Source: Streptomyces griseus subsp. griseus (GTDB taxonomy: Bacteria; Actinomycetota; Actinomycetes; Streptomycetales; Streptomycetaceae). Taken from it: a stretch of 64,000 bases of DNA. Positions 33,254 to 52,181 of the stretch are shown piece after piece. The stretch's first letter is position 1; each line of letters starts with the position of its first letter. Location: contig NZ_CP032543.1 in the NCBI RefSeq assembly GCF_003610995.1, forward strand, positions 2,604,001 to 2,668,000. The letters run 5' to 3'. A program made the translations under genes and the position numbers. The notes beneath the pieces are model-generated. The model was given only the letters and a program-made list of their open reading frames with translations, had not been told where the DNA came from and did not search any database.

Positions 33254-35491
33254 GTGCCCCGGTTCACTGTCATCGTGCCCGCATTCCGGGTCCAGGCGTA
33301 TCTGCACGCGTGTCTGGATTCCGTGCTGAGCCAGTCCTTCAAGGACTTCGAGGTCGTCGTGGTCGACGACTGCTCCCCGGACGCCTGCGGCCCGATCGCC
33401 GACGAGTACGCCCGCCGGGACCCCCGCTTCACCGCGCTCCACCTCCCCGCCAACTCCGGCCTGGGGCCCGCCCGTAACGCCGGGATGGAGCGGGCCACCG
33501 GCGACTACCTGATCTTTCTGGACGGCGACGACACCCTCCTCCCCGAGGCGCTGCGGACCATCGCCGACCGGCTCGGGGCGACCGGCGACCCCGACGTCCT
33601 GATGTACGACTACGCGCGGACGTACTGGTCGGGCCGGAGCGTACGCAACGTCCTCGCGGACCGCCTCGACGAGCGCGGCCCCGCCTCCTTCCGGCTGGCC
33701 GACCGCCCCGAGCTGCTCCACCTCCTCATGGTCGTCTGGAACAAGGCGTACCGCCGTGCGTTCGTCGAGGCCGAGGGGTTCACCTTCCCGCCCGGCTACT
33801 ACGAGGACACCCCCTGGACCTATCCGGTGCTGATGTCGGCCGGGTCGATCGCGGTCCTGGACGCGGTCTGCGTCTCCTACCGGCAGCGGCGGCGCGGCAA
33901 CATCCTCTCCACCACCAGCGAGAAGCACTTCGACATCTTCGAGCAGTACGACCGGGTCTTCGCGTTCCTCGACGCGCGCCCCGAACTCTCCGTGTGGCGA
34001 CCCGTGTTGTTCCGCCGGATGCTGGACCACTTCTGCGCCGTGTACGCCTCCCGGGACCGGCTCCCCCACCCCCGCCGCGCCGCCTTCTTCCGCCGGGCCT
34101 CCGCCTCCTGCCGCCGCTACGCCACCCCCGGTGCCCCGGTCCCCCGCCGCGCCCTGCTCCGCCACGGGCTGCTGCACCTGGGCGCCCGCCGCACCTACCG
34201 GGCCCTGGCGGCGGGCCGGCGGATCGGCGACGGGCTGCGGCGGGGCGTCGCCGCCCTGCGCCGGGTGGTGCGGGGCGCGGCGCTCCAGGCGCACTACCGG
34301 GTCCAGCTGCGGCTGCCGCTGCGCCCCCGGGACGCGGTGTTCGCCGCCTGCGGGGGCGGAGGGTACGCGGGCAGCCCGGCCGCGATCGAGGCGAAGGCGC
34401 GCGAGCTGGTCCCGGGGCTGCGGACCGGGTGGATCTGCCGCCCCCTCGACGCCCCCACCCTGCCGCCCGCCACCCGCGCCCTGACGCCGGGCTCCTTCGC
34501 GTACTGGAGCGCCCTCGCCCGCTCCACCTACCTCGTGAACGACACCGCCTTCGACCGGCGGCTGGTGAAGCGGCGCGGCCAAGTCCTCCTCCAGACCCAC
34601 CGCGGCACCCCCCTCAAGACCATCGGCACCGACCTCCTGGACCGCCCGGCCGCCGCCCGGTCCACCGACTTCGAGCAGCTGCTGCGCGACGTCGACAAGT
34701 GGGACTTCGCGCTCTCCGCCAACCCGCACTCCACGCTCGTACGGGAGCGGGCCTACCCGTCCGCGTACACGACGCTCGAACATGGCTCCCCGCGCACCGA
34801 CGTCTACCACCGCGCCGACCCCGCCGACGTGGCCCGGCTCCGCGAGACGCTCGGCATCCCGGCGGGCGCCACGGCCCTCCTGCACGCCCCCACGCACCGC
34901 GACTACCGGCGCGTCCAGCGGCCCACGCTGGATCTGGAGCGGCTGGTCCGGGTGCTGGGACCGCAGTTCGTGATCCTGGAACGCGCACCTCATGGCCACC
35001 AGCGCGGTGGCGACCGTACGCGTACGACGGCGCATCCCCGGATCATCGACGTCACCGGGCATCCCTCGCCGGAGGCGCTGGCGCTCGCCTCGGACGCGCT
35101 GATCACGGACTACTCGTCGCTGATGTTCGACTACGCCAACCTGGACCGTCCGGTGGTCCTGCATCTGGACGACATCGAGGCGTACGAGGCGGCCCGGGGG
35201 ACCTACTTCGACATCACGGCGTTCCCGCCCGGCGTCGTCGCGCGCAGCCAGGACGACCTGTTCGACATCTTCGCCACCGACCACTGGCGGGGCTCGCGCT
35301 CGGCGCAGCTGCGGGCGGCGTTCCGCGCCCGGTTCTGTCCGTACGACGACGGGAACGCGGCCGAGCGGGTGGTGCGGCGGGTCTTCCTCGGCGAGACGGA
35401 CGGGCTGCCGCTGCCCGTGCCGCCTTCGGCCCGGCGGGCGGCCGTCCCGGCGCAGCAGCATCCGGCGGGGGCCCGGGCCGCGCAGGGCTGA
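33254..35491 (+). CDS. GT2 glycosyltransferase - TagF-type glycerophosphotransferase fusion
   Basis: The 745-residue protein has a GT2 domain (about 1-230: VIVPAFRVQAYLHACLDSVL, VVVDDCSPD, FLDGDD) and a basic linker. A C-terminal CDP-glycerol:poly(glycerophosphate) glycerophosphotransferase domain follows (about 365-735: LLQTHRGTPLKTIG, SANPHST, HAPTHRDYR, ITDYSSLMFDYANLDRP). TagF enzymes transfer glycerol-phosphate units from CDP-glycerol to a lipid-linked chain at the inner membrane face. The fused GT2 could add sugars to the same polymer. The start is a GTG at 33254. The first gene of the wall glycopolymer region, it faces its neighbours convergently. Confidence 0.85.
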   Translation: MPRFTVIVPAFRVQAYLHACLDSVLSQSFKDFEVVVVDDCSPDACGPIADEYARRDPRFTALHLPANSGLGPARNAGMERATGDYLIFLDGDDTLLPEALRTIADRLGATGDPDVLMYDYARTYWSGRSVRNVLADRLDERGPASFRLADRPELLHLLMVVWNKAYRRAFVEAEGFTFPPGYYEDTPWTYPVLMSAGSIAVLDAVCVSYRQRRRGNILSTTSEKHFDIFEQYDRVFAFLDARPELSVWRPVLFRRMLDHFCAVYASRDRLPHPRRAAFFRRASASCRRYATPGAPVPRRALLRHGLLHLGARRTYRALAAGRRIGDGLRRGVAALRRVVRGAALQAHYRVQLRLPLRPRDAVFAACGGGGYAGSPAAIEAKARELVPGLRTGWICRPLDAPTLPPATRALTPGSFAYWSALARSTYLVNDTAFDRRLVKRRGQVLLQTHRGTPLKTIGTDLLDRPAAARSTDFEQLLRDVDKWDFALSANPHSTLVRERAYPSAYTTLEHGSPRTDVYHRADPADVARLRETLGIPAGATALLHAPTHRDYRRVQRPTLDLERLVRVLGPQFVILERAPHGHQRGGDRTRTTAHPRIIDVTGHPSPEALALASDALITDYSSLMFDYANLDRPVVLHLDDIEAYEAARGTYFDITAFPPGVVARSQDDLFDIFATDHWRGSRSAQLRAAFRARFCPYDDGNAAERVVRRVFLGETDGLPLPVPPSARRAAVPAQQHPAGARAAQG

Positions 35492-35550
35492 ACCGGCGCC
35501 CCGCGCTCGGGTCCGGCCCCGCGCCCACCGACGGCGCCGTCCACCCGGCC

Positions 35551-36693
35551 TCACCGCTCCAGGAACGCGAACAGCTCCTCCCAGCGCCGCGCCACCTCCC
35601 GCTCGGAGAACCGCTGGACCCCGGACCGGGCCCGGTCGCCCAGCGCGTCGCGCAGCCGGGGGTTGCCGGTCAGCCGGAGGAGCCGGTCGGCGAGGGCGGC
35701 GGTGTCCCCGGCGGGGGCGAGGAGCCCGTCCTCGCCGTCCCGGACGATCTCGCGGACCCCGGGGGCGCAGTCGAACGCGGCACACGGAACCCCGCTCGCC
35801 ATCGCCTCCAGGAGGGCGAGCGGGAAGCCCTCGCCCCGGGAGGACTGGACGAAGACGGAGGCGTCCGCGAGGGCCCCCTCCACGTCGTCCGTGCGGCCCA
35901 TCCACTCCACGGACCCGTCCAGGCCCAGCCCGGTGCACCGCTCCCTCAGCGCGGCCTCGTCCTCGCCCGTCCCGTACACACGCAGCCGCCAGTCGGGGCG
36001 CTGCGGGGCGACCAGGGCCCAGGTGTCGAGGAGCAGGTCGATGCCCTTCTGGTCGGTGAGACGGCCGATGCTCGCCACGGTCCTCGCGGTGCGCGGCGAG
36101 GGCACGAGGGGCAGGAGGGCGAGGGCGTTGGGGAGGAAGCCGACGTTGTCGAAGCCGTCGCCCGCCCACCGGTCGGCGTCCTCCTCGGTGAGGACGAGCC
36201 AGTGGTCGATGTCCTTGTAGTGGTTCCTGATCCAGCGGTAGCGGTGACTCGCGCGGGAGTAGTCGTAGGACTCGTGACTCATCCCGATGGTCCGCAGCCC
36301 GGTGGTGTCGGCCTCCCCCACCCACTCCATCGCCCAGACCTGGGTGACGACGACGACCGCGCCGGGCCGTGCGGTGGCGAAGAGTTCGGAGAGGTGCTCG
36401 ACCGCCCGCCGCTTCGCCGCGGCCCGGGCCGCCTCCCGGCGCCGGGTGGGGATGCGGAAGCGGTCGCGGATGCCCTGGGGGGCCCAGGGGGTCGGCGGGT
36501 GGGCCGGGTAGAGGGCGGTGACGGGGTGGCCGGGCCGGGCGGGCAGGGCCATCTTCCGGTCGGAGGCGTGGATGCCGACGGTGTGGACGCGGTGGCCCTG
36601 CTCGGTGAAGAGGCGGGCGGTCTGGTGCATCCAGGCGGTGACACCGCCGAGTTCGTCGGTGCTGTTGGAGACGATGAAGATGTCACGGCTCAT
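35551..36693 (-). CDS. GT4 family glycosyltransferase
   Basis: The 380-residue protein has the GT-B fold of family 4: N-terminal FIVSNSTDELGGVTAWMHQTARLF, and C-terminal RTVASIGRLTDQKGIDLLLDTWA, VYGTGEDEAALRE and RGEGFPLALLEAMASGVPCAAFDC, with the EX7E-type donor-binding motif. It transfers a nucleotide-sugar residue to a cytoplasmic or lipid-linked acceptor, probably part of the wall glycopolymer. Its ATG overlaps the stop of the upstream TagF-type gene (36690-36693), so it is the third gene of a coupled operon (43066 to 35551). Confidence 0.88.
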   Translation of the reverse strand: MSRDIFIVSNSTDELGGVTAWMHQTARLFTEQGHRVHTVGIHASDRKMALPARPGHPVTALYPAHPPTPWAPQGIRDRFRIPTRRREAARAAAKRRAVEHLSELFATARPGAVVVVTQVWAMEWVGEADTTGLRTIGMSHESYDYSRASHRYRWIRNHYKDIDHWLVLTEEDADRWAGDGFDNVGFLPNALALLPLVPSPRTARTVASIGRLTDQKGIDLLLDTWALVAPQRPDWRLRVYGTGEDEAALRERCTGLGLDGSVEWMGRTDDVEGALADASVFVQSSRGEGFPLALLEAMASGVPCAAFDCAPGVREIVRDGEDGLLAPAGDTAALADRLLRLTGNPRLRDALGDRARSGVQRFSEREVARRWEELFAFLER

Positions 36694-39545
36694 CGGCCGG
36701 CCCCCGGGCGGTGGTGGTGGTCGGTGGTACGGGAGGCGCCCTGCCGGGCGAACACCGCGGCGACGACCTGGCGGGCCGCGTCCCCCCGGTCGTAGGCGCC
36801 GAACTCCGCGGCGAAAGCGGCCCGATGGGAGGCGTGCCGGATGTCGGACTTCTTCAACTCGGCGATCTCCGCGAAGAGTTCCTCCTGTGTCGCGGTCACC
36901 GGGCCCGGTGCCCTCTCCCGCAGGTCGAAGTAGCTGCCGCGCTCGGCGGCGTACGTGTCGAGGTCGGGGGCGTACAGGACGACGGGCCGGTCCAGCAGCG
37001 CGAAGTCGAACATGATCGAGGAGTAGTCGGTGACCAGGACGTCGGCCAGGGCGAGGATCTCGCTGACGTCGTGGTGGCGCGAGACGTCGATCACCGTGCC
37101 GGGCGGGCAGACGGGGAGCCGGGCGGCCTCCAGGTAGTGCGCCCGGACGAGGAGGGTGTGCGTGTCCCCGAACCGTTCGGCGAACTCCCTGACGTCCAGC
37201 AGGAGTCGGCGCCTGGTCTGCTTTCCGCCCGCCGCCGGGCCGCCCCGGAACGTCGGCGCGTACAGCACCACCTTCTTGTGGTCGTCCAGCCCCAGCGCCC
37301 CGGCCAGCGGCGGCCGTGGCAGCCGGCCCTCGCTCTCGGCCCGGGTGCGCTCGGCGGCCAGGGCGTCGTTGCGCGGGTAGCCGGTGCGCAGCAGCCGCTC
37401 CTCGGGGAGGCGGTAGGCGCGGGCGAGGGTGTTCACGTCGTGCTCGGAGCGGACGAGGAAGTGGTCGAAGCGGTGGACGGCCTGCTGGAGGCGTTCGCGC
37501 TGGGGGGCGTTCTGAAGGCGTACGCGGGTCTCGTCGAAGCCCATCCTCTTGTACGCCGAGCCGTGCCAGGTCTGGAGGTAGGTGGTGCGGGCGGGCTTGC
37601 GCAGGTGTTGCGGGAAGCCCTGGTTGTCGACCCAGAACTCGGCGCGGGCCAGCGCCCAGAGGTACCGCCAGGACCAGCGGCGTACGAGGCGGGCGTCGGC
37701 CGGGAAGCCGTCCGGGGAGGTGTCGTAGGACCAGGTGGAGCGGAGCCTCAGCCCCTGGCGGCGGATCTCCTCGTGGAGGGCGCGCGGGCTGTCGCCGTAG
37801 CAGCGGCCCATGTGGCTCTCGAAGACGACGGAACCCCGGCGGACGGGGAGCCGGGTGAGCCAGGCGTTGTAGGCGGTCGCCTTGAAGGACCGGGAGCGGT
37901 AGCGGTCCAGCCGCCTGCGCAGGGCGCGGGTGAGGAGCCTGGCCTGGCGGGCGGGGCGGAAGTGGGTGGCGTAGCGGACCAGGCGGTGGGCGGTCCGGGC
38001 CGGGCTGCGGCGGGCGGTGAGGCGGAGGGCCAGGTGGTCCTTGAGGGTGATGTAGGGCTCCCAGGTGTCCCCGGCGAGCCGCCCGAGCCGGGGCCGGGCG
38101 GCGAACCGGACCGCGCCCCCCACCACGTCCTGCGGGCCGAAGAGATCACTGACGGACCGGACCCCTCCCGCCGCCACGATCAGCCGCGCGTCCCAGGCCG
38201 TGTCGCGGATGCCGACGGGGCGCAGGAGGCGGGTGACATCGGCGCGCGCCCCCCAAGTGATCCCGTTCCCGTCGCGGCAGACGTCGTCCACCGGGAACGC
38301 GACGGCGCGCGCCCCGCCCCGGGCCCGGAACTCCAGGGTGGCGGTGAAGGGGGTGTCCGGGGCGCCGTGCGGGGGCAGCACGAGGCGGCCCTCCAGCAGC
38401 AGCCTGCCCTCCTCGGCGGTGCAGCGGGTGAGCCTGTTCATCAGCCGGGCCTCACCGAACACCCGGTACCGGTGCCCCAGTTCGCTGACGTCCACAGGAC
38501 AGCGGTCGTCCCACTCCACCCGCCCGTCCTCGCCCCCGACGACCGGGGCGCAGACGGTCGCGGGACGGCTCAGCGCGTACGCCGCCGTCAGGACGCCCTC
38601 CGCGTCGCCCCGGGCCAGCAGAGTGGCCGCGACCCGCTCCAGCGGCGGCAGTCCGTCCGGCACGGGCGCGGTCAGGACGCGGGCGGCCGTGGCGGCGGTC
38701 CGGGTGCGGCGGGCGGCGGGGAGCCGGGGGAAGGCGCGGGCCAGCGGCACCAGGTGGTCGCGCACGAAGGCCCGCTCCCGCTCCTCGCTCAGCGCCGGAA
38801 GTCCTTGCGCGTCGAGGGTGTTGGCGACCCGGCGGTGGGCCTCCACCAGGGCGGTGAGGTCGCGGGCCCGGTCGGGGACGGCCCGGCCGGTCACGATCAG
38901 CCGCCGGACGAGGGTGATCCGGCCCACGGCTGCGGCGGCCAGCGGGCCGAACAGGATCTCGCCGTGCGCCAGGTCCTCCTCGTACCGCAGCCCATGGCGC
39001 CGGGCAGCCTCGCGGCGCAGACAGAACCCGGTCACCAGGGCGTCCCTGACCACGAGTTGGGGCGCGTCGGTGAAACGCGGGACGGTACGGGAGCGGGCGT
39101 ACAGCTCGTCCTGCCACGGCGGCTCCTGCTCCTTGCCGCCCTCGCCCACGGCCCGGCTCCACCGCCCGGCCACCAGGTCGGCGCGGCTGCGCTCACCCGC
39201 CTGCCAGAGGTTGCGGCAGGCGTGGCGGTGGAGGCGCTCACCGGGGGTGAGGACGAGGACGTACCGGCCGGCCGCCGCGTCGAGGCCCGCGTTGCGCAGG
39301 GCGCCGGTGGTGCGGACGGCCGGGTCGGCGTGGATCAGACGGACCCGGTCGGGGGCGGAGTCGGCGAGGGTACGGGCGGCGGTGCGGAGGATCGCGTCGG
39401 TGCCGGAGGCGAGGACGACGACGGCCTCGGAGCCGCGCAGCGACTGGCCGAGGACGGAGGCGACGGAGGCGCGCAGGGCGTCGGCGTCGCCCGGGCCTTC
39501 GCCGCTCTCCCCGCCGCCGGTGATCACACAGCTGAAGTCGGTCAT
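36690..39545 (-). CDS. Large TagF-type glycerophosphotransferase with degenerate GT2-like N-terminus
   Basis: The 951-residue protein has an N-terminal GT2-like fold (about 1-200) in which the usual DDGS is replaced (VVLASGTDA), so that part may be inactive. A middle region of beta-strand character (about 330-500) is followed by the TagF domain (about 560-950: FESHMGRCYGDSPRALHEEI, LQTWHGSAYKRMG, YAPTFRGG, VTDYSSIMFDFALLDRP). The role is polymerising or priming a glycerol-phosphate-type wall polymer. It is coupled by ATGA overlaps both to the 1174-residue enzyme upstream and to the GT4 gene downstream. Confidence 0.83.
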   Translation of the reverse strand: MTDFSCVITGGGESGEGPGDADALRASVASVLGQSLRGSEAVVVLASGTDAILRTAARTLADSAPDRVRLIHADPAVRTTGALRNAGLDAAAGRYVLVLTPGERLHRHACRNLWQAGERSRADLVAGRWSRAVGEGGKEQEPPWQDELYARSRTVPRFTDAPQLVVRDALVTGFCLRREAARRHGLRYEEDLAHGEILFGPLAAAAVGRITLVRRLIVTGRAVPDRARDLTALVEAHRRVANTLDAQGLPALSEERERAFVRDHLVPLARAFPRLPAARRTRTAATAARVLTAPVPDGLPPLERVAATLLARGDAEGVLTAAYALSRPATVCAPVVGGEDGRVEWDDRCPVDVSELGHRYRVFGEARLMNRLTRCTAEEGRLLLEGRLVLPPHGAPDTPFTATLEFRARGGARAVAFPVDDVCRDGNGITWGARADVTRLLRPVGIRDTAWDARLIVAAGGVRSVSDLFGPQDVVGGAVRFAARPRLGRLAGDTWEPYITLKDHLALRLTARRSPARTAHRLVRYATHFRPARQARLLTRALRRRLDRYRSRSFKATAYNAWLTRLPVRRGSVVFESHMGRCYGDSPRALHEEIRRQGLRLRSTWSYDTSPDGFPADARLVRRWSWRYLWALARAEFWVDNQGFPQHLRKPARTTYLQTWHGSAYKRMGFDETRVRLQNAPQRERLQQAVHRFDHFLVRSEHDVNTLARAYRLPEERLLRTGYPRNDALAAERTRAESEGRLPRPPLAGALGLDDHKKVVLYAPTFRGGPAAGGKQTRRRLLLDVREFAERFGDTHTLLVRAHYLEAARLPVCPPGTVIDVSRHHDVSEILALADVLVTDYSSIMFDFALLDRPVVLYAPDLDTYAAERGSYFDLRERAPGPVTATQEELFAEIAELKKSDIRHASHRAAFAAEFGAYDRGDAARQVVAAVFARQGASRTTDHHHRPGAGR

Positions 39546-42500
39546 GCCTGCACCCCCTCGGCCCCCGAGGCGTCTTCGGTCCGGGACTCGCCCTCGGGCC
39601 CCGGGCCCTCCTTGAGCATCCGGTCGACTACCCGCGCCGCCGCGCTCCCGTCGTCCAGATCGCAGAACGCCTCCCGGAACCGCTCGTACGCCCCCGCGTG
39701 CCCGGCGACGGCGGCCTCCGGATCGCGCAGGGCGGCCACGACACCGGCGGAGTCGGGGATCAGGGGCCCGGGGGCGCGGTGCTCGAAGTCGAAGCAGAAG
39801 CCGCGCAGGGTGTCCCGGTAGTGCGCCAGGTCGTGGGTGTGGAAGAGCATCGGGCGGCCGGTCTGCGCGAAGTCGAACATGATCGAGGAGTAGTCGGTGA
39901 CCAGGACATCGCTGATCAGCAGCAGTTCGGCGACGTCCGGGTGGCGCGAGACGTCCCGGACGAAGTCGGTGTCGGGGACGCTGCCGCCGACCAGGTAGTG
40001 GCGGCGCACCAGGAGGACACGGTCACCGCCGAGGGCCTCGCGGGCCTGGTCCAGGTCGAGTTGGAGGTCGGCGTCGTACCGCCCGGCCCGCCGTGGCCGG
40101 TCCTCGCGCCAGGTGGGGGCATACAGGATCACCCGCCGCCCCTCGGGGATCGCGAGCCGCTCCCGTACGGCGGTGGCGACCTTGGCCCGGTCGGGCGCGT
40201 ACAGCAGGTCGTTGCGCGGGTAGCCGCACTCCAGCACCTCGCCCGAGTAGCCGAAGGCGCGGCGCAGGACCGGGGTGGAGAAGCTGTTCGGGGAGACGAG
40301 CAGGCTCCACTGGGCGGACCGGTGCTCCATGGAGGCCATGTAGGCGGCGTCCGCGTGCGGGGTGCCCGCGAGGTCCCGGCCGATGCGCTTGAGCGGGGTG
40401 CCGTGCCAGGTCTGGACGACGCACTGCCCCTCGGCCCGCTCGAACCACTGCGGCAGATGGGTGTTGGTGACGACCCAGCGGCTCCGGGCGAGCGCCTCGT
40501 ACCACTCGGCGCTGTGCAGGGCGATGGCGCGGACGCCCTCGGGCACGGCCGCCTGCTGGTCGCGGACGACCCAGAGGTGTTCGATGTCCGGTGCGCGGGC
40601 GGCCAGTTCGCGGTGGATCGCGCGGGGCGAGTCGGAGTGCTGGCGGCCGTCGAAGCTGGAGTAGAGGGCGGCCGGGCGCAGTTGGCCACGGTCGGCGGCG
40701 CGGAGTCCGGCGTACCGCTCGCGCTGGACGCGCTGCCCATACGGTCCCTGTTCGCCGACCGGGAGGGCGCTGCCGGACTCCAGGACGAGCCGGTCGTGGT
40801 GGCGGCGCTGGAGGGTGAACGTCCTGCCGCTCAGCTCCCGTTGAAGCGGCAGGTCCGCGTGGAGCTGGGTGGCCAGGCGCAGGGGCCGGTACGCGTCGGG
40901 GTCGCGTTCGCCCGGCTCACGGAGGAAGAGGTACCAGCGCCCCTCGGCCGGCGGCAGCGGCCCGCCGGGACCATCGACGGCGGCGGGGCTGACGACCGCC
41001 CGGAAGCCGCCCCCCTCCTCCAGCTCACACGCGAGAACAGCCTCTTCATGGTGGCCGCTGTGCCGCAGGATCAGCTCGCCGATGGTCCCGGACGGCTCCG
41101 GAAACGCCCCTTCGAGGACCAGCTCCCCGCCCTCGGCCCACGCCGCGGAGGTGACGACGGGCTGTACGGCCCGGTCGGTGAGGACGAGGTCGCCGGACGG
41201 GTTCGGGGCCGCGTACAGCTCGCGTCCGCCGGGGAGCGGGAAGCGGCCGTCCTCGGCGTCCGTCCGGGCGGCCACGGTCAACCGGTCTTTTCCGCCCACC
41301 AGTTGTACGCCCCAGACCTCGTCCCTGCCACGGAACGCACTGAGCGGGATCTCGGCGGCACGGGACCCCAGGGAGCCGCGCAGCGCGAACTCCTGGATGT
41401 CCTTGGTGCGCCACTCGGTCAGCCGCAGAGCCACCGGCCCGTCGTCGTCGAGGACCTTCACCTCCAGGTGGAGGGAGCCGTCGGTGACCGAGTGGCCGGT
41501 CAGGAGGGCCGCGATCCGCTCGGTGCGCAGCTCCAGCTTGTTGCCGGAGAGGACGGGGACGACCCGGGTCCGCTCGTCCGTGTACAGGGCGGCGGGCGGG
41601 GCCGGGGTGCCGGTGAGCCGCATCGGGCCCCGGCGGAGGCGGCCCGCGCCGAACAGGACGGACTCCAGCTTCCATGTCGTACGCCCGGCCTTGCCCATGC
41701 TCTTGCTCTTGCTCTTGGTGGCGATGGCGCGCGGGTCGATGACCGCCTCGAACCCGGCGTGCGCGTACCGGTGCAGGGAGCGTCCGGAGCGGGCGGTCGC
41801 CTCGTCGCCACCGGTGCCGTCGGTGGACCGCAGGCGCAGCGGGACCAGCCGCTTCCCGGACCGCAGCCAGCCGAGCCGGGGCGGCCCGCCGGGGGCGTTG
41901 CGTACGTAGGCGTACCCGGTCAGCCGCAGCAGCCCGTCCCGCCACACGGCCTCGGTGAGGTGGGCGTGCACGGGGAGGTCGGCGGGGGTGAGCGCGGTCG
42001 CGGCGGGCGGCAGCGGGTCGCGGACGGCGGGGTGGTGGGCGCGGGGACGGAGGAGGCCGCGTACGTGGAAGGCGTCGCGGTCGCCCTTCTCCTCGCCGAG
42101 CAGCGCGAGGAGTTCGGCGATCCGGCGCTCGCGGATCAGCTGCCACTTGACCCGCAGATCCAGCGGCAGGCCGGCGAAGACGGCCGGATCGACGGTGGCG
42201 GCGAAGGCCCCCGCGTGATCGAGGAAGGCCTCGTGGAACTCCTCGTCCCCCTCCGGCAGCGCCTCGATGAACAGCCACAGGTCGCCGGAGAGCACGTGCG
42301 CGTCGTAGCGCCGCCTGGCCTCGGCCAGGCCGGGGCGGCCGGCGAGGAAGTCGCTGACGGTGGTGACGGCGGTGACCCGGTCGCGGATGCCCTGGGGGAC
42401 GGCCCGGCGGGTGGTGATCGACCCGTCGCGGTCGCGCCAGTGGTAGACGGGCTCCTCGACGACGTCGACCGAGCGGGCCAGGAAGTGGGCGGGCAGGACG

Positions 42501-43066
42501 ACGGCGATGTCCTCGTAGAGCACGCCCGTCGGGAAGGCGAAGGCGTGCTCGTCCCAGAAGGTGCGGCGGAACACCTTGTTGCAGGCGATGCGGTCGCCCA
42601 GCAGGATCCAGTCGCGGGTGACGTGGGTGGCCGGCCGGGCCTTCTCCATCGGCTTGCGGAACATCGGGGACTGTTCCAGCGCCCCGTTCGCCCGCAGCCG
42701 CAGTACGTTGCCGGTCGCGAAGTCGGAGCCTGAGGTGTCGAGTTCGGCGAGCATGCGCTCGTACGCGCCCGGAGGGACGATGTCGTCGCTGTCGACGAAC
42801 GTGAGGAACTCCGCGGCGGGGTCCGCCTCGCGCACACCGGCGTTACGGGCCGCGCCGAGCCCGGCGTTCTGCTGCCGGATCAGCCGGAAGCGGGGGTCGC
42901 TGTCGGCGAACTCCGCTGCCACGACGGGCCCGTTGTCGGTGGAGCCGTCGTCGACGAGGACGACCTCCAGGTCCGCCATGGTCTGTTCGGCGAGCGAGGT
43001 CAAGCAGGCACCGAGGTACTCCTCGACGTTGTAGAGGGGGACGACGACGGTGAGACGGGGTGCCAT
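39542..43066 (-). CDS. GT2 - TagF bifunctional wall polymer synthase
   Basis: The 1174-residue protein has a canonical GT2 domain (about 1-230: VVVPLYNVEEYLGACLTSL, VDDGSTDN, FVDSDD). A long middle part (about 330-760) contains beta-rich segments, and a TagF domain closes the protein (about 770-1150: YSSFDGRQHSDSPRAIHREL, VVQTWHGTPLKRIG, YAPTWREDR, VTDYSSIMFDFAQTGRP). It leads a minus-strand operon with the next two genes, joined by a 4-base overlap. Enzymes of this class build complex teichoic acids by alternating sugar and polyol-phosphate transfer. The exact product here is unknown. Confidence 0.87.
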   Translation of the reverse strand: MAPRLTVVVPLYNVEEYLGACLTSLAEQTMADLEVVLVDDGSTDNGPVVAAEFADSDPRFRLIRQQNAGLGAARNAGVREADPAAEFLTFVDSDDIVPPGAYERMLAELDTSGSDFATGNVLRLRANGALEQSPMFRKPMEKARPATHVTRDWILLGDRIACNKVFRRTFWDEHAFAFPTGVLYEDIAVVLPAHFLARSVDVVEEPVYHWRDRDGSITTRRAVPQGIRDRVTAVTTVSDFLAGRPGLAEARRRYDAHVLSGDLWLFIEALPEGDEEFHEAFLDHAGAFAATVDPAVFAGLPLDLRVKWQLIRERRIAELLALLGEEKGDRDAFHVRGLLRPRAHHPAVRDPLPPAATALTPADLPVHAHLTEAVWRDGLLRLTGYAYVRNAPGGPPRLGWLRSGKRLVPLRLRSTDGTGGDEATARSGRSLHRYAHAGFEAVIDPRAIATKSKSKSMGKAGRTTWKLESVLFGAGRLRRGPMRLTGTPAPPAALYTDERTRVVPVLSGNKLELRTERIAALLTGHSVTDGSLHLEVKVLDDDGPVALRLTEWRTKDIQEFALRGSLGSRAAEIPLSAFRGRDEVWGVQLVGGKDRLTVAARTDAEDGRFPLPGGRELYAAPNPSGDLVLTDRAVQPVVTSAAWAEGGELVLEGAFPEPSGTIGELILRHSGHHEEAVLACELEEGGGFRAVVSPAAVDGPGGPLPPAEGRWYLFLREPGERDPDAYRPLRLATQLHADLPLQRELSGRTFTLQRRHHDRLVLESGSALPVGEQGPYGQRVQRERYAGLRAADRGQLRPAALYSSFDGRQHSDSPRAIHRELAARAPDIEHLWVVRDQQAAVPEGVRAIALHSAEWYEALARSRWVVTNTHLPQWFERAEGQCVVQTWHGTPLKRIGRDLAGTPHADAAYMASMEHRSAQWSLLVSPNSFSTPVLRRAFGYSGEVLECGYPRNDLLYAPDRAKVATAVRERLAIPEGRRVILYAPTWREDRPRRAGRYDADLQLDLDQAREALGGDRVLLVRRHYLVGGSVPDTDFVRDVSRHPDVAELLLISDVLVTDYSSIMFDFAQTGRPMLFHTHDLAHYRDTLRGFCFDFEHRAPGPLIPDSAGVVAALRDPEAAVAGHAGAYERFREAFCDLDDGSAAARVVDRMLKEGPGPEGESRTEDASGAEGVQA

Positions 43067-43236
43067 CGCAGCGCACGATCCTTCCGGGCGGACGACATCG
43101 GGGAGATGACCATCGAGGGGTATGAGGGAGCCACGGTGTACAACCCGCGCCCCCGGGCCCGGTCACCCGAGGGGAGCCATTCGGGTGACGGAGCGGGCGG
43201 GGTCACGCGCACGGGGGCGCGCCGGTGACACAGCCG

Positions 43237-43265
43237 AGCCCCGTACCGGAGAGGGGCACGGGGCT
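43237..43265 (-). terminator. Hairpin after the methyltransferase operon
   Basis: An 8-bp perfect stem AGCCCCGT (43237-43244) / ACGGGGCT (43258-43265) lies 30 bases beyond the methyltransferase stop and ahead of the next minus-strand operon (start 43066). It is a plausible terminator separating the two operons. Confidence 0.55.
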
Positions 43266-43294
43266 GGGGCCTGCCGCAGGTCAGGTCCGGCAGG

Positions 43295-44194
43295 TCAGGG
43301 CTTGACGGCGATGCGGCCCTCGTCCATGCGCAGCAGCAACAGCCGCTCACCGGTCTTGTCGAGGAACTCGTCGACGGCCTGGCGCGATCCCTGCCAGTAG
43401 CCGTAGTCGTCGATCAGCAGCACACCGCCGCTGACCAGCCGGGAGTAGAGGTGCTCCAACTCGTGCTTGGTGGAGGCGTACCAGTCGGTGTCCAGGCGCA
43501 GGATCGCGATCTGCTCGGGCGCCTGCTCCGGGACCGTGTCCTCGACCCGCCCCTGCACGTAGTGGACGCGCTCCTTCGGGTACGGGACGTTCTCGAACCC
43601 GGCCTGCACGTCCTCCAGCGAGGCGACCGCCCAGATCGGCCGGTCCTTGCCCTGGGCGTCCAGCAGCTCCTGTGCCGGGCGGCCGTCGCGCCGCAGGTCC
43701 TCGGCGGTGGGCGGGGTCATGCCCTCGTACGTGTCGAAGAGGTACAGCTCGCGCTCGGTCTCCCCGGCGGAGAGCAGGGTCCGGGCGCAGGCCTGCATGG
43801 AGCCGCCGCGCCAGACGCCGCACTCGACGATGGAGCCCGGGATGTCGTGCCGGGCGATGTACCGGGTGGCGAGGATGAAGGCGTTGAGCCGCTCCGGCGA
43901 GGTCATCGAGTACGGCTTGACCGCCCGGATGATGTCCCTGGCCTCGTCGTCGTAGTCCTCCGGGAAGGCCGGGGAGGGCTTCTTCGCGGGGGACTTCTCC
44001 GCCTCGGGCCCCTTCGCCTCCGGCTTCGGGGGCGCCGGGGCGGGGGTCGAGGCCGCGAGGGATTCGGCCGGGGCCGTACGGGCGGCGGGCACCGTCACGC
44101 GCCTGAGCTGGTATCCGGTGAGCTGCTGAAGGACGCCGTTGACGGCGTTGCGCCAAGCCATGGACCCGGACAGTACGCGCGGTTTGTGGCGCAT
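43295..44194 (-). CDS. TylF/MycF-type SAM-dependent O-methyltransferase
   Basis: The 299-residue protein has an Ala/Pro-rich N-terminal segment (about 40-75) and then a TylF-type methyltransferase fold. Visible elements are GSIVECGVWRGGSMQACART, LYLFDTYEGMTPPT, LRLDTDWYASTKHELEHLY and GGVLLIDDYGYWQGSRQAVDEF, the last with the metal-binding Asp residues of this family. It methylates a sugar hydroxyl, so a methylated sugar in the wall polymer is likely. The start is ATG at 44194 or a second ATG at 44161. It follows the second methyltransferase gene by 11 bases. Confidence 0.85.
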   Translation of the reverse strand: MRHKPRVLSGSMAWRNAVNGVLQQLTGYQLRRVTVPAARTAPAESLAASTPAPAPPKPEAKGPEAEKSPAKKPSPAFPEDYDDEARDIIRAVKPYSMTSPERLNAFILATRYIARHDIPGSIVECGVWRGGSMQACARTLLSAGETERELYLFDTYEGMTPPTAEDLRRDGRPAQELLDAQGKDRPIWAVASLEDVQAGFENVPYPKERVHYVQGRVEDTVPEQAPEQIAILRLDTDWYASTKHELEHLYSRLVSGGVLLIDDYGYWQGSRQAVDEFLDKTGERLLLLRMDEGRIAVKP

Positions 44195-44205
44195 GTCACT
44201 TTTCG

Positions 44206-45012: not shown

Positions 45013-45052
45013 GGACGTCTCCCAACCTCGCTGTGTACGTGAGCTGTCGGAA

Positions 45053-46267
45053 TCAACGACCGCGTGGGGCAAAGGGGACGCCGAAGAACCGCCGTACGAC
45101 CCGTTCCGCCGCGTGCCCGTCGTCGTACGGGCAGAACCGCTCCCGGAACGCGGTGCGCAGCGCGGCCGACGCGGGTGAGCGCCACTCCCCCGTACGGAAC
45201 GCCTCGACCAGCTCGTCGGAGGTGGTGGTGACGGTGCCCGGGGTGTCGCCGAGCCGGCCGGAGAGCAGGTCGAAGTAGGTCCCGCGGGTGGTCCGGTAGG
45301 CGTCCCAGTCGGGGGCGTGGACGACGATCGGGCGGTCCAGGCAGGCGTAGTCGAAGGTCAGGGACGAGTAGTCGGTGATCAAAGCGTCGGCGGCCAGGCA
45401 GAGTTCTTCGATCCGGGGGTGTGCGGTGACGTCCAGGACCCGGCCGGTGCCGGTCGGGTCCTGGATGCCTGCGGACCGGCCGTAGAAGTAGTGGGCGCGC
45501 ACCAACACCACGTACCGCTCACCGAGTTCACGGGTCAGGTGCTCCGGGTCGAGATCGGGTGCGAAGCCCTCGCGGTAGTCGCGGTGGGTCGGGGCGTAGA
45601 GGAGGGCGACCTGCCCTTCGCCGATGCCGAGTTCGGCACGGATCTTCGCGATGTCCTCGGCGGTGGCGGTGAAGTAGACGTCGTTACGGGGGTAGCCGAG
45701 GTCGAGGTGCTGGTAGGCCGGTCCGTCCGAGGGGGCCGGGTAGACGCGGTCCCAGACATCGGTGCTGTGCGGGTTGGCGGAGAGGCTGAAGTCCCACTGG
45801 CCCACGTGCGCAAGGATTTTGGCGAAGTCCGCCTTCCGGGCGAGGGCGGGGTAGGCGCGCTGGTCCAGGCCCATCGTCTTGAGCGGGGTGCCGTGGTGGG
45901 TCTGGAGGTAGCGCTGACCGGGGCGCTTGGTGAAGCCGCCGGGGAAGCTGGAGTTGTTGACCAGGTACGTGGCGGTGGCCATCGCCCGCCAGTAGGGGCG
46001 CGAGCCCTCGATGACGTACGGCACACCCGGGGGCATCCGGTCGCGGTGCCGGGAGGAGACGGCCCACACGCCCGTGATGTGCGGGGCGAGTTGGCGCGCC
46101 TTGGCGTGGATGGCGGCGGGGTTGCAGGCGACGCCCCGGTTCCAGTAGGCCCCGTAGACCGCGAGGTTCGGGTCGAGGGGGCGGTGGAGGTCGGTGCGGT
46201 AGGCGGCCCGCATGACCTGCCTGCGGACGAACCGCTTCATGGATGCTCTGGTGGGCCTGGAGGGCAT
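45053..46267 (-). CDS. Stand-alone TagF/TagB-type glycerophosphotransferase
   Basis: The 404-residue protein consists of the glycerophosphotransferase domain only (VYGAYWNRGVACNPAAIHAK, YLQTHHGTPLKTMG, SANPHSTDVWDRVYP, YAPTHRDYREGF, ITDYSSLTFDYACLDRP). It is the shortest of the five TagF-type proteins here and could be the primase that adds the first unit. I used the ATG at 46267. An in-frame start at 46291 is possible. It heads an operon with the two methyltransferases and is divergent from the 1254-residue enzyme. Confidence 0.87.
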   Translation of the reverse strand: MPSRPTRASMKRFVRRQVMRAAYRTDLHRPLDPNLAVYGAYWNRGVACNPAAIHAKARQLAPHITGVWAVSSRHRDRMPPGVPYVIEGSRPYWRAMATATYLVNNSSFPGGFTKRPGQRYLQTHHGTPLKTMGLDQRAYPALARKADFAKILAHVGQWDFSLSANPHSTDVWDRVYPAPSDGPAYQHLDLGYPRNDVYFTATAEDIAKIRAELGIGEGQVALLYAPTHRDYREGFAPDLDPEHLTRELGERYVVLVRAHYFYGRSAGIQDPTGTGRVLDVTAHPRIEELCLAADALITDYSSLTFDYACLDRPIVVHAPDWDAYRTTRGTYFDLLSGRLGDTPGTVTTTSDELVEAFRTGEWRSPASAALRTAFRERFCPYDDGHAAERVVRRFFGVPFAPRGR

Positions 46268-46368
46268 GGCAGCCGAGGGTAGTCGCGGCACCGGCCGCCG
46301 GGCTGCCCGCGTTCACCCGTTCGGGGCAGCGCCGGTGCCCCCGGGACCCGCCCTCCGTTGACCAGGAC

Positions 46369-49300
46369 ATGAAGCCACCGCTCCTCAGCGTCGTCATCCC
46401 CGTCCACAACGTCGAGGACTACCTGGAGGACTGCCTGCGATCGGTGGCGGAGCAGACCCTCGCCGCGATCGAGGTGGTGATGGTCGACGACGGTTCCACG
46501 GACGGCAGCGCGGCGATCGCGGAGGCGTTCGCCGCCCGGGACAGCCGCTTCCGGCTGGTGCGGCAGCGGAACGGCGGCCTGAGCGCGGCCCGCAACACCG
46601 GTGTCCGGCACACCACTCCGGCGGTCCCCTACCTGGCGTTCGCGGACAGCGACGACTTCGTCGTGCACGACGCGTACGAGCGGATGGTGGCCTCGCTGGA
46701 GTCGACCGGCTCCGATCTGGTGACCGGCAATGTGTGGCGGCTCACCGAGCGGGGGCGGCAGCAGGCCTGGCAGTACCGCTGGCTGACCGCCACGCGTTCC
46801 CGCACCCACATCACCCGGGACCCGCGCCTGCTGGCGGACCGGGTGGCGTGGAACAAGGTGTTCCGGCGCTCCTTCTGGGACGGGCACGCCTTCGCCTTCC
46901 CCGAGGGGAAGCTGTACGAGGACACGCCGGTGATGATCCCCGCGCACCATCTGGCCGGGTCCGTGGACGTCCTGCACGAGCACGTCTACTACTGGCGGGT
47001 GCGGGAGGGGTCGATCACCCGGCGGCGGACGGATGTCACCGGCGTACGGGACCGGATCGACGCGTCCGAGCAGGTCAGCGCCTTCCTGGGCGAGCGGCAG
47101 GCGGGCCCGGAGCAGCGGCGGGCGTACGACGTGTCCTGTCTGCGCGACGACTTCGGGTACTTCCTGGACGGGTTGCCGATGGGCGGCGAGGCCTACCGGG
47201 CGGCGTTCCTGGAGGGGGCCGGGGCGTTCGTGGACCGGGCGGGGGACGGGGTGCTGGCGGGGCTGCCGGTGGAGCTGCGCATCAAGTGGCAGCTGGTGCG
47301 GGAGCGGCGGCTTGAGGAGCTGCTGGCCGTCCTCGCCTTCGAACGGGCCAACGGGGTGGGGACGTTCGCGGTGGAGGGGCTGCCCGGACGGCGGAGGGCG
47401 GTCTACCCCGGCGTGCGCGGCGCGAGCGCCCGGCTCGCGCGCACCGACGTACCGGCGGTCGCACGGCTCGTGGAGGCGCGGTGGGGCGCGGACGGGAAGC
47501 TCCGGCTGCGCGGGTATGCCTATCTGCGCAACCTTCCGGCCGGGTCGGCGCGGCAGCAGATGAAGGTGGGGATGGTCCGGGCGGAGGGGGGCCGTCGGGT
47601 GCGGGCCGTGCCGGTGCGGACGGTGCCGGTGCCCGAGGCGACGGTGAACTCCGGTCAGGAGCTGCACGGTTACGACCACGCGGGCTTCGAGATGGTCCTC
47701 GACCCGGACCGGCTGCCCGCCGCAGGGGACGGCGGTGGCGGCTGGCTGGTCGGGCTGGTCGTCGCGGCGCACGGGACGGTACGGCGGGTGGCGGTGCGCG
47801 CCCTGGACGCGGGCGCGGACCAGCCGCTGGTGCACGACCTGGGGGACGGACGGCGGGCGGTACTGGACCACCGGGGCGGTCGGCTGCGCGTGAGGGTGGC
47901 ACGGCTGGGTGCGGTGGTGGAGGGGGTCGGCGGTGCGGAGGGGTTCGGCGGTCCGGAAGGGGGCGGCGGTCCGGAGAGGGGCAGCCGTCCGGACGGGGGC
48001 GACCGTCCGGAGGAGAGCGGCGGTCCGGAAGGAGGCGCGCTGGAGTTGTCGGGGCGGTACTTCGAGGGCGCCGCGGCTGCGGCCCTTGTGCTGATGCGCG
48101 ACGGGGAGAGGGAGCGTTCGTTCCCGGTGGAGTGCGGGGCGGCTGGGGAGGGTGAGGGCCGTGGGACGGCTTTCACGGTACGTGTCCCTCTCGACGGTCT
48201 CGCCGCCGTACCGCCCGCCCCGCACCGGGCCCCGCCCGAGGTCAGGGCGGAGGGCGGCGCGCGGTGGCGGACCCGGCTGCTGCTCGCGGACGGCACCCGC
48301 ACCCCGCTGCCCGCCGCGCCGGACCTGCCGCCGCCCGCGTGTGCGGACGCGGCGGGGGAGCTGGTGGTGGACCTGGGCGGGCTGCCGGTGGCGGACGAGG
48401 TGGAGCGGCTGGGGGACGGTTCGCTACGGGTCCGGGGGACGTACGGAGGGGCCTCCGCAGCCCCGGGGACGTACGGAATGGCCTCTCCGGCTCCGGGAAC
48501 GGACGGAGTGCCCCCCACGGCTCCGGGGACGTACGCGCCGGCGCTTTCGGGAGCGTACCTACCGGCGGCCGCGGCAACAGCCCCCGGCACCGGCGCACGC
48601 CTTCTCCTCCGCCACGAGACCCTGCACGAGACGCTCCCCGCCACCGAGGTCACCGTCGTCACCGAGGCCACCGTCGGGGCCCGCCCCACCGGCCGCTTCT
48701 CCGTGCGGATCGCCCCGCCCCTCCCCGAAGGCCGCTGGGGTCTCCACCTCGACGGTCACCCCGTCCGCGTCCTCGCCTCCCTCGCCGCTCGCCTCCCCTG
48801 CGGCGACTCCGCCCTCGCCCTGGAGCGGCGCGACGGCGACCGGCTGACCGTCCTGGCGGCTCCGGCGCTCCCGGTCGCCGAGCGGAGCGCGTACAGCAGG
48901 CGGCTTCTGCGCGACGCGCACCACGGCGCCGGGCGCACCACCCTCCCGCTCCTGGACACCGTCCTCTACGCGGGCGGCGCGGGCGGCGACTCCCCGCGCG
49001 CCGTGCACGCCGAGCTCATCCGCCGGGGCGTGGCGGCCGAGCACCTGTGGGTGACCGGGACCGCCCCCGGCCGTGCGACCCGTGTCCCGCCCGGTGCGCG
49101 GGCCGTCCCCGTGCACAGCACCGCCTGGTACGAGGCGCTGGCCCGCGCCCGGTGGATCGTCACGGACGGGCAGCTGCCGGTGTGGTTCGAGCGGCGCCCC
49201 GGGCAGACCGTCGTCCAGACCTGGCACGGCACCCCGCTCGGCCGCTTCGGCACCGGCCTGACGGAGACCCTCTACGCTGACCACCAGCATCTCGCCACCC

Positions 49301-50133
49301 TGGCCCACCGATCGGCCCAGTGGTCGGTACTGGTCTCCCCGAGCCGCTTCGCCACCCCGTTGCTGCGCAGGTCACTGGCGTACGACGGGGAGGTGCTGGA
49401 GGCCGGATCGCCCGCCAACGACGTGCTGTGCGCGCCCGACCGGGACAAGACCGCCGAAGAGATCCGGCGCACGCTGGGCGTACCGGAGGACCACCGCGTC
49501 GTCCTGTACGCGCCGACCTACCGCGACCACCTGGCCCACCCCCCGTCCGCCGCCCCCCACTCCCCCGACCGCACGGCCCCCGGCCCGTACCGCTGGGATC
49601 CGGCGCTGGACCTGCCCGCGCTCGCGCGCTCGCTGGGCCCCGGCCACACGGTGCTGGTGCGCCGGCACCCCCGGGTCACGGGCAGCATCGCGGAAGGGCC
49701 CGGCGTCCTCGACGTCTCCCGCCACCCGGGCGCGGCCGAACTGCTGCTGATCGCGGATGTGCTGGTCACCGACTATGCGGGACTGATGTTCGACTTCGCG
49801 CTGACGGGCCGGCCGATGCTCTTCCACACATACGACCTGGAGCACTACCGCGACACCGTGCGCGGCTTCTGCCTGGACTTCGAGACCCGGGCGCCCGGGC
49901 CGCTGCTGGTCACGACGGACGAGGTGGTGCAGGCCCTGCGCGGCCTCGGGGCGCTGGCGGCCCGGCACGCCGACGCGTACGAGAGCTTCCGCCACGACCA
50001 CTGCGACCTGGACGACGGCGGGGCGGCGGGGCGGGTGGCGGACCGGCTGCTGGCGGACCTCGCACAGCGCTCTGCGGACGTCCCCCGGAAGAGTGGCGGG
50101 CGGGAGGGACGGCCCCGCGCACGGAACTCATGA
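46369..50133 (+). CDS. GT2 - TagF bifunctional wall polymer synthase (largest)
   Basis: The 1254-residue protein has a canonical GT2 domain (about 1-230: VVIPVHNVEDYLEDCLRSV, VDDGSTDG, FADSDD) and a long middle part. A TagF domain closes the protein (about 850-1235: VVQTWHGTPLGRFG, YAPTYRDH, VTDYAGLMFDFALTGRP). The usual TDYSS reads TDYAG, a notable change in a conserved motif. Two repetitive segments occur: Gly-Pro-Glu-rich units at about 520-560 and APGTYG-like units at about 690-735. Both lie in the middle linker and look like recent expansions. It is followed after three bases by the membrane protein gene. Confidence 0.85.
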   Translation: MKPPLLSVVIPVHNVEDYLEDCLRSVAEQTLAAIEVVMVDDGSTDGSAAIAEAFAARDSRFRLVRQRNGGLSAARNTGVRHTTPAVPYLAFADSDDFVVHDAYERMVASLESTGSDLVTGNVWRLTERGRQQAWQYRWLTATRSRTHITRDPRLLADRVAWNKVFRRSFWDGHAFAFPEGKLYEDTPVMIPAHHLAGSVDVLHEHVYYWRVREGSITRRRTDVTGVRDRIDASEQVSAFLGERQAGPEQRRAYDVSCLRDDFGYFLDGLPMGGEAYRAAFLEGAGAFVDRAGDGVLAGLPVELRIKWQLVRERRLEELLAVLAFERANGVGTFAVEGLPGRRRAVYPGVRGASARLARTDVPAVARLVEARWGADGKLRLRGYAYLRNLPAGSARQQMKVGMVRAEGGRRVRAVPVRTVPVPEATVNSGQELHGYDHAGFEMVLDPDRLPAAGDGGGGWLVGLVVAAHGTVRRVAVRALDAGADQPLVHDLGDGRRAVLDHRGGRLRVRVARLGAVVEGVGGAEGFGGPEGGGGPERGSRPDGGDRPEESGGPEGGALELSGRYFEGAAAAALVLMRDGERERSFPVECGAAGEGEGRGTAFTVRVPLDGLAAVPPAPHRAPPEVRAEGGARWRTRLLLADGTRTPLPAAPDLPPPACADAAGELVVDLGGLPVADEVERLGDGSLRVRGTYGGASAAPGTYGMASPAPGTDGVPPTAPGTYAPALSGAYLPAAAATAPGTGARLLLRHETLHETLPATEVTVVTEATVGARPTGRFSVRIAPPLPEGRWGLHLDGHPVRVLASLAARLPCGDSALALERRDGDRLTVLAAPALPVAERSAYSRRLLRDAHHGAGRTTLPLLDTVLYAGGAGGDSPRAVHAELIRRGVAAEHLWVTGTAPGRATRVPPGARAVPVHSTAWYEALARARWIVTDGQLPVWFERRPGQTVVQTWHGTPLGRFGTGLTETLYADHQHLATLAHRSAQWSVLVSPSRFATPLLRRSLAYDGEVLEAGSPANDVLCAPDRDKTAEEIRRTLGVPEDHRVVLYAPTYRDHLAHPPSAAPHSPDRTAPGPYRWDPALDLPALARSLGPGHTVLVRRHPRVTGSIAEGPGVLDVSRHPGAAELLLIADVLVTDYAGLMFDFALTGRPMLFHTYDLEHYRDTVRGFCLDFETRAPGPLLVTTDEVVQALRGLGALAARHADAYESFRHDHCDLDDGGAAGRVADRLLADLAQRSADVPRKSGGREGRPRARNS

Positions 50134-52153: not shown

Positions 52154-52181
52154 GGCCCGAATGATAGTCGGCGACGACGGA

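What the first reader, a model, noticed from the sequence alone, without database searches (positions are those of the whole stretch)
33254..50133. Five TagF-type enzymes, four fused to GT2 or GT2-like domains
The set ranges from a 404-residue TagF alone to fusions of 745, 951, 1174 and 1254 residues, arranged in two minus-strand operons plus two plus-strand genes. In several the long middle region is unassigned. The mix suggests a wall polymer with alternating sugars and polyol phosphates plus O-methylated sugars (two methyltransferases). A division into primase, chain extender and branching enzyme is testable.
Basis: partly seen in the sequence, partly recalled or inferred. Interest (0 to 1): 0.7.

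Follow-up and report, generated by a model that had tools for sequence, protein, structure and literature searches.

The report
Teichoic acid locus with half-dead enzymes
A Streptomyces gene cluster for a cell-wall polymer holds five related polymer-building proteins, and two of the four two-headed ones have each apparently lost a different head, so the work looks shared out between partners rather than done by five complete machines.

Summary
In detail: five TagF-domain (PF04464) genes at 33254-50133, four with an N-terminal GT2 or GT2-derived domain, in a wall teichoic acid (WTA) locus with TagGH. The kind is known: S. epidermidis TagF itself has a GT2-like N-terminus, and GT-A/TagF capsule polymerases are characterised (PMC5974469).

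(1) F745 keeps a GT2 active site, but its TagF half lacks both catalytic His (R and P). H444 is lost in 35 of 89 orthologues; the GT2 DxD is intact in 87 of 87 readable.
(2) F951 is the mirror image: TagF motifs intact, GT2 DxD absent in all 119 readable listed homologues, present in 12 of 12 distant ones.
(3) F404 is TagF only; F1174 and F1254 look complete.
(4) The 'unassigned' middles resemble TarS/RmlT linker and beta-sandwich parts, in F1174 also TarL/TarK N-terminal domains.
(5) Many sister loci share constant ends with different interiors.

Best reading: a ribitol-type WTA cassette with labour divided by domain loss; the dead halves remain under purifying selection. 'Primase, extender, brancher' found no support. 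New variant of a known kind.

The parts
33254..33913 (+). F745 residues 1-220: GT2 (GT-A) domain, motifs DDCS, DGD, YED intact
   Evidence: PF00535 115.9 bits; DD/DxD intact in 87 of 87 readable orthologues of 89
34292..35386 (+). F745 residues 347-711: TagF domain lacking both catalytic His (R450 at SeTagF H444, P579 at H584)
   Evidence: PF04464 351 bits; alignments
35551..36693 (-). GT4 glycosyltransferase, start codon overlaps the stop of F951; pair kept in distant relatives
   Evidence: PF13692 132.8 bits; GT4-like frame beside the F951 homologue in 12 of 12 loci
36750..37856 (-). F951 residues 564-932: TagF domain, both catalytic His present
37896..38840 (-). F951 residues 236-550: helical linker and beta-sandwich, TarS/RmlT-like
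38841..39545 (-). F951 residues 1-235: GT2 fold without DxD (predicted inactive)
39614..40669 (-). F1174 residues 800-1151: TagF domain, both His present
40763..42391 (-). F1174 residues 226-768: linker and beta-sandwich segments; 631-768 TarL-NTD-like, 519-634 TarK-NTD-like
42401..43066 (-). F1174 residues 1-222: GT2 domain, motifs intact
43295..44161 (-). TylF-type O-methyltransferase
   Evidence: PF05711 148.5 bits
44206..45024 (-). Class I SAM methyltransferase
   Evidence: PF08241 37.4 bits
45053..46267 (-). F404: TagF domain alone, both His present; nested among GT2-TagF fusions in the tree
46369..50133 (+). F1254: GT2 plus long middle plus TagF, paralogue of F1174, motifs intact
50137..51360 (+). 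Downstream protein of 407 aa, no Pfam match at E 0.001; homologues at sister loci
51542..52222 (-). TetR regulator, placed like TagR of S. roseosporus
   Evidence: PF16859/PF00440; PMC10269677 passages
52316..53278 (+). TagG-type ABC permease
   Evidence: PF01061 46.5 bits
53271..54074 (+). TagH-type ABC ATPase
   Evidence: PF00005 72.1 bits

Best explanation
This is a Streptomyces wall teichoic acid cassette between constant flanks (sugar importer and F745 on one side, TetR-TagG-TagH and glutamate dehydrogenase on the other). Steps inferred: the polymer is built on its lipid in the cytoplasm, TagGH exports it, and LCP proteins elsewhere in the genome attach it. Chain growth by polyol-phosphate transfer is done by the four TagF domains that keep both His (F951, F404, F1174, F1254), and glycosyl transfer by three live GT2 domains (F745, F1174, F1254) and the GT4. 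The methyltransferases probably cap or modify the sugars. Two formerly two-headed enzymes have each lost one head: F745 now acts as glycosyltransferase only, F951 as polyol-phosphate transferase only. Each would work with a partner that supplies the missing activity (my guess: F404 for F745, GT4 or F1174 for F951), and the dead domain stays as scaffold or acceptor-binding part. The polyol is probably ribitol. Shown by computation: gene content, motif losses, their phylogeny, folds. Inferred: substrates, partners, order of steps.
For: Domains and cut-offs. F745 lacks H444 and H584: multiple alignment, pairwise alignment. The corresponding H-to-A mutants of Cps1B and Cps7D, and the DxD mutant of Cps1B, make no polymer, yet GT-dead and TagF-dead mutants complement each other in trans (PMC5974469 section 13). 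H444 lost in 35 of 89 F745 orthologues against DD/DxD intact in 87 of 87 readable; in named genomes plus the window 26 of 81 lost H444, GT2 triad intact in 79 of 81. At least 8 changes on a quick tree, 7 forced by starred branches; the window-clade loss is one supported event in 5 rows. F951: the two DxD Asp are never both present in the 119 readable of the 120 listed homologues (34 of the 120 keep the first Asp, 1 the second; the list is the top 120 of 4184), present in 12 of 12 distant homologues; all 21 loci with the dead-GT2 F951 also hold F1174. NG86 dN/dS of dead halves 0.24-0.53, below 1 but above the live half of the same protein in 18 of 18 pairs. CDP-ribitol: IspD-SDR protein of 499 aa beside an Obg-type GTPase and about 6 kb from the sixth TagF. 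Eight LCP matches, one marginal.
Against: No activity has been measured for any of these proteins. An Arg or Glu in place of H444 might support another chemistry. F745 also lost H444 in 3 of 13 loci where it is the only TagF gene found, so a partner in the locus is not always needed; loss with a companion is 27 of 50, but only 4 independent pairs exist on the tree, so the association is not significant. The dN/dS pairs share sequences. No CDP-glycerol synthase (TagD) or TagA match passes its cut-off, so the linkage-unit route is unknown. The sixth TagF elsewhere may make the main chain, leaving this locus a second polymer. Beta-sandwich matches of F1174 are partly generic: Foldseek also lists immunoglobulin-type receptors and an adhesin, at weaker E-values.
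Confidence: 0.6

Rival explanations
1. Five ordinary bifunctional or monofunctional TagF enzymes, all active, building one alternating sugar/polyol-phosphate backbone.
For: TagF-like polymerases with an N-terminal GT-A or C-terminal GT-B domain and alternating products exist (PMC5974469 section 6); F1174 and F1254 keep both active sites.
Against: F745 lacks both TagF His, F951 lacks DxD. The N-terminal half of F951 resembles TarP/TarS/RmlT, side-chain enzymes as I recall.
Confidence: 0.12
2. The lost motifs are simple decay: F745 TagF and F951 GT2 are on their way to being pseudogene segments without function.
For: H444 is lost repeatedly and to nine different residues; dN/dS of the dead halves is higher than that of the live halves.
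Against: dN/dS stays at 0.24-0.53, the frames compared stay open, and the dead GT2 of F951 persists in homologues down to 57% identity.
Confidence: 0.15
3. The altered domains have a new catalytic role: the changed F745 TagF site binds a different donor or acts as an acceptor or lipid clamp with its own chemistry.
For: Third tandem F745-like copies at sister loci have Gln or Arg at H444 in 39 of 40 cases, which suggests a kept, not random, change in that group.
Against: In F745 itself the replacements are diverse, not one fixed residue.
Confidence: 0.13

Closest known systems
Group 2 TagF-like capsule polymerases with GT-A/TagF architecture (Cps1B and relatives; PMC5974469)
   Same: N-terminal GT-A domain plus TagF-like domain in one chain; same catalytic motifs; single-domain mutants trans-complement.
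   Different: Those tested there have both domains active in one enzyme. Here one half is naturally lost in two of four fusions, several paralogues sit side by side in a Gram-positive WTA locus, and F1174 carries extra TarL/TarK-NTD-like modules.
S. epidermidis TagF (3L7I)
   Same: GT2-like N-terminus and TagF domain (two matched stretches).
   Different: F745 lacks H444 and H584. Whether SeTagF has a TarS-like beta-sandwich was not tested; the crystal chains cover about 400 residues.
S. aureus TarS/TarP and L. monocytogenes RmlT
   Different: Fused to a TagF domain; the F951 DxD is gone.
S. aureus TarL/TarK
   Different: Joined behind a GT2 module; sequence models of TarL are far below their cut-off.
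S. coelicolor WTA set SCO2979-SCO2998 with SCO2997 (Kleinschnitz 2011; not held, seen only in citing passages and reference lists)
   Same: Described as a second WTA gene set with several such transferases; I equate the loci by flanking genes (gene numbers of the flanks recalled).
   Different: Gene content of the S. coelicolor interior was not compared here; the window's interior differs from the three-tandem type seen in many sister loci.
S. roseosporus TagR-TagGH (PMC10269677)
   Same: TetR gene beside and divergent from tagG-tagH, as in the window.
   Different: In the passages and section I read, the paper deals with the transporter and its regulator, not with the TagF genes.

Membership tests
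TagF-like (PF04464) protein family | Domain over the curated cut-off | tested here: met
   5 of 5 proteins, 274-401 bits against 22.1
TagF-like (PF04464) protein family | Catalytic His (H444, H584 of SeTagF) in F951, F1174, F404, F1254 | tested here: met
   4 of 4
TagF-like (PF04464) protein family | Catalytic His in F745 | tested here: not met
   R and P at the two places (a His follows the P but is not kept in relatives); a member by descent, not a predicted active TagF enzyme
GT-A/TagF-like capsule polymerase architecture | N-terminal GT-A domain with DxD plus TagF domain with both His in one chain: F1174, F1254 | tested here: met
GT-A/TagF-like capsule polymerase architecture | The same in F745 and F951 | tested here: not met
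   F745 fails on the TagF side, F951 on the DxD side
GT-A/TagF-like capsule polymerase architecture | Polymer product from nucleotide-activated donors in vitro | not testable with these tools
   needs purified enzymes
TarS/TarP/RmlT WTA glycosyltransferases | Fold of GT2, linker and C-terminal beta-sandwich | tested here: met
TarS/TarP/RmlT WTA glycosyltransferases | TarS_linker PF22181 over cut-off | tested here: not met
   F1174 19.1 and F1254 26.5 bits against 27; not listed for F745 or F951
TarL/TarK ribitol-phosphate polymerases | N-terminal domain fold in front of the TagF domain (F1174) | tested here: met
TarL/TarK ribitol-phosphate polymerases | Curated TarL model NF041713 over cut-off | tested here: not met
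   54-89 bits against 1000 in the five proteins
TarB-type primase | Curated TarB model NF041711 over cut-off | tested here: not met
   28-68 bits against 500
Wall teichoic acid locus | TagGH-type exporter beside the polymerase genes | tested here: met
   PF01061 and PF00005 at 52316-54074
Wall teichoic acid locus | Wall polymer lost or changed in mutants | not testable with these tools
   needs mutants and NMR

The most novel reading that the evidence does not exclude
Streptomyces assembles this wall polymer with a naturally split set of two-headed enzymes: paralogous GT2-TagF proteins in one locus have lost opposite active sites (TagF side in F745, GT2 side in F951, whole GT2 in F404), keep the dead halves as selected scaffolds, and work only as a complex. 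It would be nature's own version of the trans-complementation made in the laboratory with Cps1B mutants. The repeated loss on the TagF side of F745 across the genus would mark recurrent rewiring of a polymorphic wall-antigen locus, possibly driven by phages or wall-binding toxins.
Probability: 0.35. Interest if true: 0.7.

Novelty: new variant of a known kind. Interest (0 to 1): 0.5.

Why it matters
Databases often name the F951 and F1174 homologues 'bifunctional glycosyltransferase/CDP-glycerol:glycerophosphate glycerophosphotransferase' (listings); for F951 half of that name is probably wrong. If the mirror-image losses reflect an obligate complex, single deletions plus wall NMR could show how a teichoic acid assembly line divides polyol transfer and glycosylation. 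The constant-ends, variable-interior layout would also let wall-polymer type in Streptomyces be guessed from one locus. Glycan chains carried on WTA are receptors for umbrella toxins in this genus (PMC13274773, passages and section 9), so variation here may matter in such conflicts.

Tried and rejected
Primase/extender/brancher division: no TarB-like score stands out. Partner rule (F745 loses TagF only where another TagF is present): 3 of 13 alone against 27 of 50 with companion, but only 4 independent pairs and clear exceptions (L097, L109, L112), so not claimed. CDP-glycerol route: the TagD model gave one match below cut-off, 65.6 against 165.4 bits, and WecG/TagA none over its cut-off; this is weak evidence of absence. 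One read of L002 (protein 3) was a wrong-frame ORF without matches and was dropped. The tRNA-Thr call inside the TylF gene I take as a false positive. In one search, homologue P0201 is a fragment without the GT2 region and was left out of the 120, giving 119; P0230 is partial but readable at DxD. In one search, L039 and L122 were unreadable for GT2 because the fetched stretch or contig ends there; six of the 89 orthologues (L039, L114, L118, L120, L121, L122) were set by identity alone, without the perm2 neighbour. Searches used 100 regions chosen by me from the listing, not all 150 genomes; 83 of the 102 tabulated loci show perm2 and 63 show perm2 together with TagG or TetR. The rest are cut off, or are F745-like genes in other surroundings (for example L043-L045, L047, L049, L050), so the constant-ends layout is not universal. 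An automatic order test missed L026, which one search shows in the same order. The model of F1174 has low confidence in the GT2 part (pLDDT under 50 at 108-221), so only its middle and C-terminal matches are used. F1254 exceeds the folding tool's length limit; its middle is placed by homology to F1174 alone. Whole-model structure searches may miss single domains. That I found no paper on domain-inactivated TagF/GT2 fusions in Streptomyces rests on the listings of searches (the last returned nothing) in an open-licence library only.
Full report
Observation. The window lies in a 7.24 Mb genome. Named genomes that hold close relatives of F745 are Streptomyces; the nearest listed are S. cyaneofuscatus, S. 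microflavus and Streptomyces sp. CB00316 (best segments 88-90% identical). The five TagF genes are real and at the stated places. I call them F745, F951, F1174, F404 and F1254. Beside them lie a GT4 glycosyltransferase, a TylF-type and a second methyltransferase, a 407-residue protein without Pfam match, a TetR regulator and TagG/TagH. A sixth TagF lies elsewhere (G000:C1:2171594), about 6 kb from an IspD-SDR protein of 499 residues that looks like a TarIJ fusion, next to an Obg-type GTPase. The S. griseus TagF gene SGR_4957 and TarIJ gene SGR_4956 lie near ribosomal L21/L27 (PMC13274773, passages); that Obg sits there too is recalled. S. coelicolor is described as having two WTA gene sets, one including SCO2979 and SCO2998 (PMC3937824, passage). 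I equate the window locus with that set by flanking genes; the SCO numbers of the flanks are recalled.

Active sites. Mutation of the TagF His (places of H444 and H584 of SeTagF) or of the GT-A DxD stops polymer formation in Cps1B, and of the His in Cps7D, and single-domain mutants rescue each other in trans (PMC5974469 section 13). On an alignment ruled by SeTagF (pairwise check), F951, F1174, F404 and F1254 keep both His. F745 has Arg and Pro; a His directly after the Pro is not kept in its relatives. In F745 the GT2 motifs DD, DxD and ED are intact. In F951 the DxD reads T-P-G. Among the 120 listed homologues of F951 (the top of 4184) one is a fragment; in the other 119 the two Asp are never both present, though 34 of the 120 keep the first and 1 the second. 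In 12 distant homologues (31-43% identical, each beside a GT4-like gene) the motifs of both halves are intact, 12 of 12. So the F951 GT2 half lost its site after the split from these. All 21 tabulated loci with the dead form also hold F1174, while none of the 12 distant loci shows a second TagF domain in the roughly 10 kb fetched.

F745 across the genus. A protein search of 150 genomes of the genus found a match in all 150, but many are other paralogues. I fetched 100 stretches of up to 20 kb chosen from that list. In 89 loci an F745 orthologue could be set, 83 by its neighbour perm2 and 6 by identity alone. H444 is lost in 35 of 89, to nine different residues, while the GT2 DD/DxD is intact in 87 of 87 readable (2 truncated); the E-D base pair is altered in 6 of 87. 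In 80 named genomes plus the window, H444 is lost in 26 of 81 and the GT2 triad is intact in 79 of 81; some of these are the same or close species as the unnamed ones, so the two counts are not independent. On a FastTree tree of 87 orthologues the kept/lost state needs at least 8 changes, 7 forced by starred branches; the window's loss of both His is shared by a supported clade of 5 rows. Loss is commoner where other TagF genes share the locus (27 of 50 against 3 of 13), but the tree offers only 4 independent pairs, so this is no test.

Selection. NG86 dN/dS on 6 pairs in the clade that lost the F745 His gives 0.24-0.53 for the TagF half and 0.12-0.28 for the GT2 half; in 6 pairs that kept them 0.10-0.37 and 0.11-0.27. 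For F951 the dead GT2 half has 0.24-0.45, the TagF half 0.15-0.30, in 12 pairs. The dead halves are relaxed but not neutral. Pairs share sequences and the GC content is high, so the values are rough.

Descent. In the TagF-domain tree (94 rows, quick method) F1174, F1254, F951 and SeTagF fall on one side, F745 and F404 on the other. SeTagF is a long row, and the join of F951 with its farthest homologues was flagged as long branches meeting. F404 lies in a starred set of 12 rows with F745-type genes; five of the frames there (L105, L046, L055, L044, L054) cover over 700 of the 745 residues of F745, so F404 most simply lost its GT2 part.

Locus layout. Of 102 tabulated loci, 83 show perm2 and 63 show perm2 with TagG or TetR in the fetched stretch. 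Between these ends the interiors differ: the window type (GT4-F951-F1174-TylF-MT-F404-F1254, in the same order in 14 loci, window included), a type with three tandem F745-like genes, and a minimal type with F745 alone. Other F745-like genes lie in different surroundings. The layout resembles capsule or O-antigen loci (recalled). TUA loci of Streptomyces are also described as variable outside a handful of core genes (PMC13274773 section 9); those lie near the other WTA locus.

What it makes. Poly(ribitol phosphate) with 4-linked beta-glucose, partly 3-O-methylated, is reported for S. antibioticus, and mainly poly(RboP), perhaps with glycerol-phosphate branches or ends, for S. griseus (PMC13274773, passages). 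The IspD-SDR protein, the TarS/RmlT fold and the TarL-like layout fit a ribitol polymer with sugar side groups; two methyltransferases fit methylated sugars. The TarF-model scores would fit glycerol as well. Side groups versus alternating backbone is open.

Verdict. A known kind of locus and known kinds of domains, with a sound first observation. What is new here is the mirror-image loss of active sites in paralogous fusions, the repeated loss in F745 across the genus, and the assignment of the middle regions. I found no report of it in the listings of searches, which cover an open-licence library only. Kleinschnitz 2011 on SCO2997 could not be read and may bear on it. Papers: PMC5974469 outline with abstract and sections 6 and 13; PMC13274773 passages and section 9; PMC10269677 passages and section 8; PMC3937824, PMC7831098, PMC7300013, PMC6629963 and PMC11481543 passages only.

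Noticed in passing
sister loci such as L032, L033, L037, L057, L113 (third F745-like gene): In loci with three or more F745-like genes the third copy has Gln (32) or Arg (7) at the TagF His H444 in 39 of 40 cases, the exception being L115, so this group may be a non-standard or inactive TagF. Second copies keep both His in 44 of 46.
   Followed up: partly
L023 and L064, F1254 orthologues: F1254 has lost H444 in two relatives (R in L023, P in L064), so the same kind of loss is starting in another paralogue.
   Followed up: no
window 50137-51360 +: A 407-residue protein without Pfam match; partly similar frames sit inside many sister loci. Role in the pathway unknown.
   Followed up: no
window 43428-43523 +: ARAGORN calls a tRNA-Thr (cgt) of 96 bases inside the TylF gene on the other strand; probably a false positive.
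   Followed up: no
window 13257-13643 -: tmRNA gene with tag peptide ANSKRDSSAFALAA.
   Followed up: no
window 54174-59270 +: A 1698-residue open frame runs antisense to the glutamate dehydrogenase gene, one of many long antisense frames, as I would expect at this GC content.
   Followed up: no
L100, L103, L109, L112 (F745 orthologues): The GT2 base pair E-D reads A-D or T-D in these loci, where F745 is the only TagF gene found, and H444 is also lost in two of them: perhaps a further decaying or altered form.
   Followed up: no
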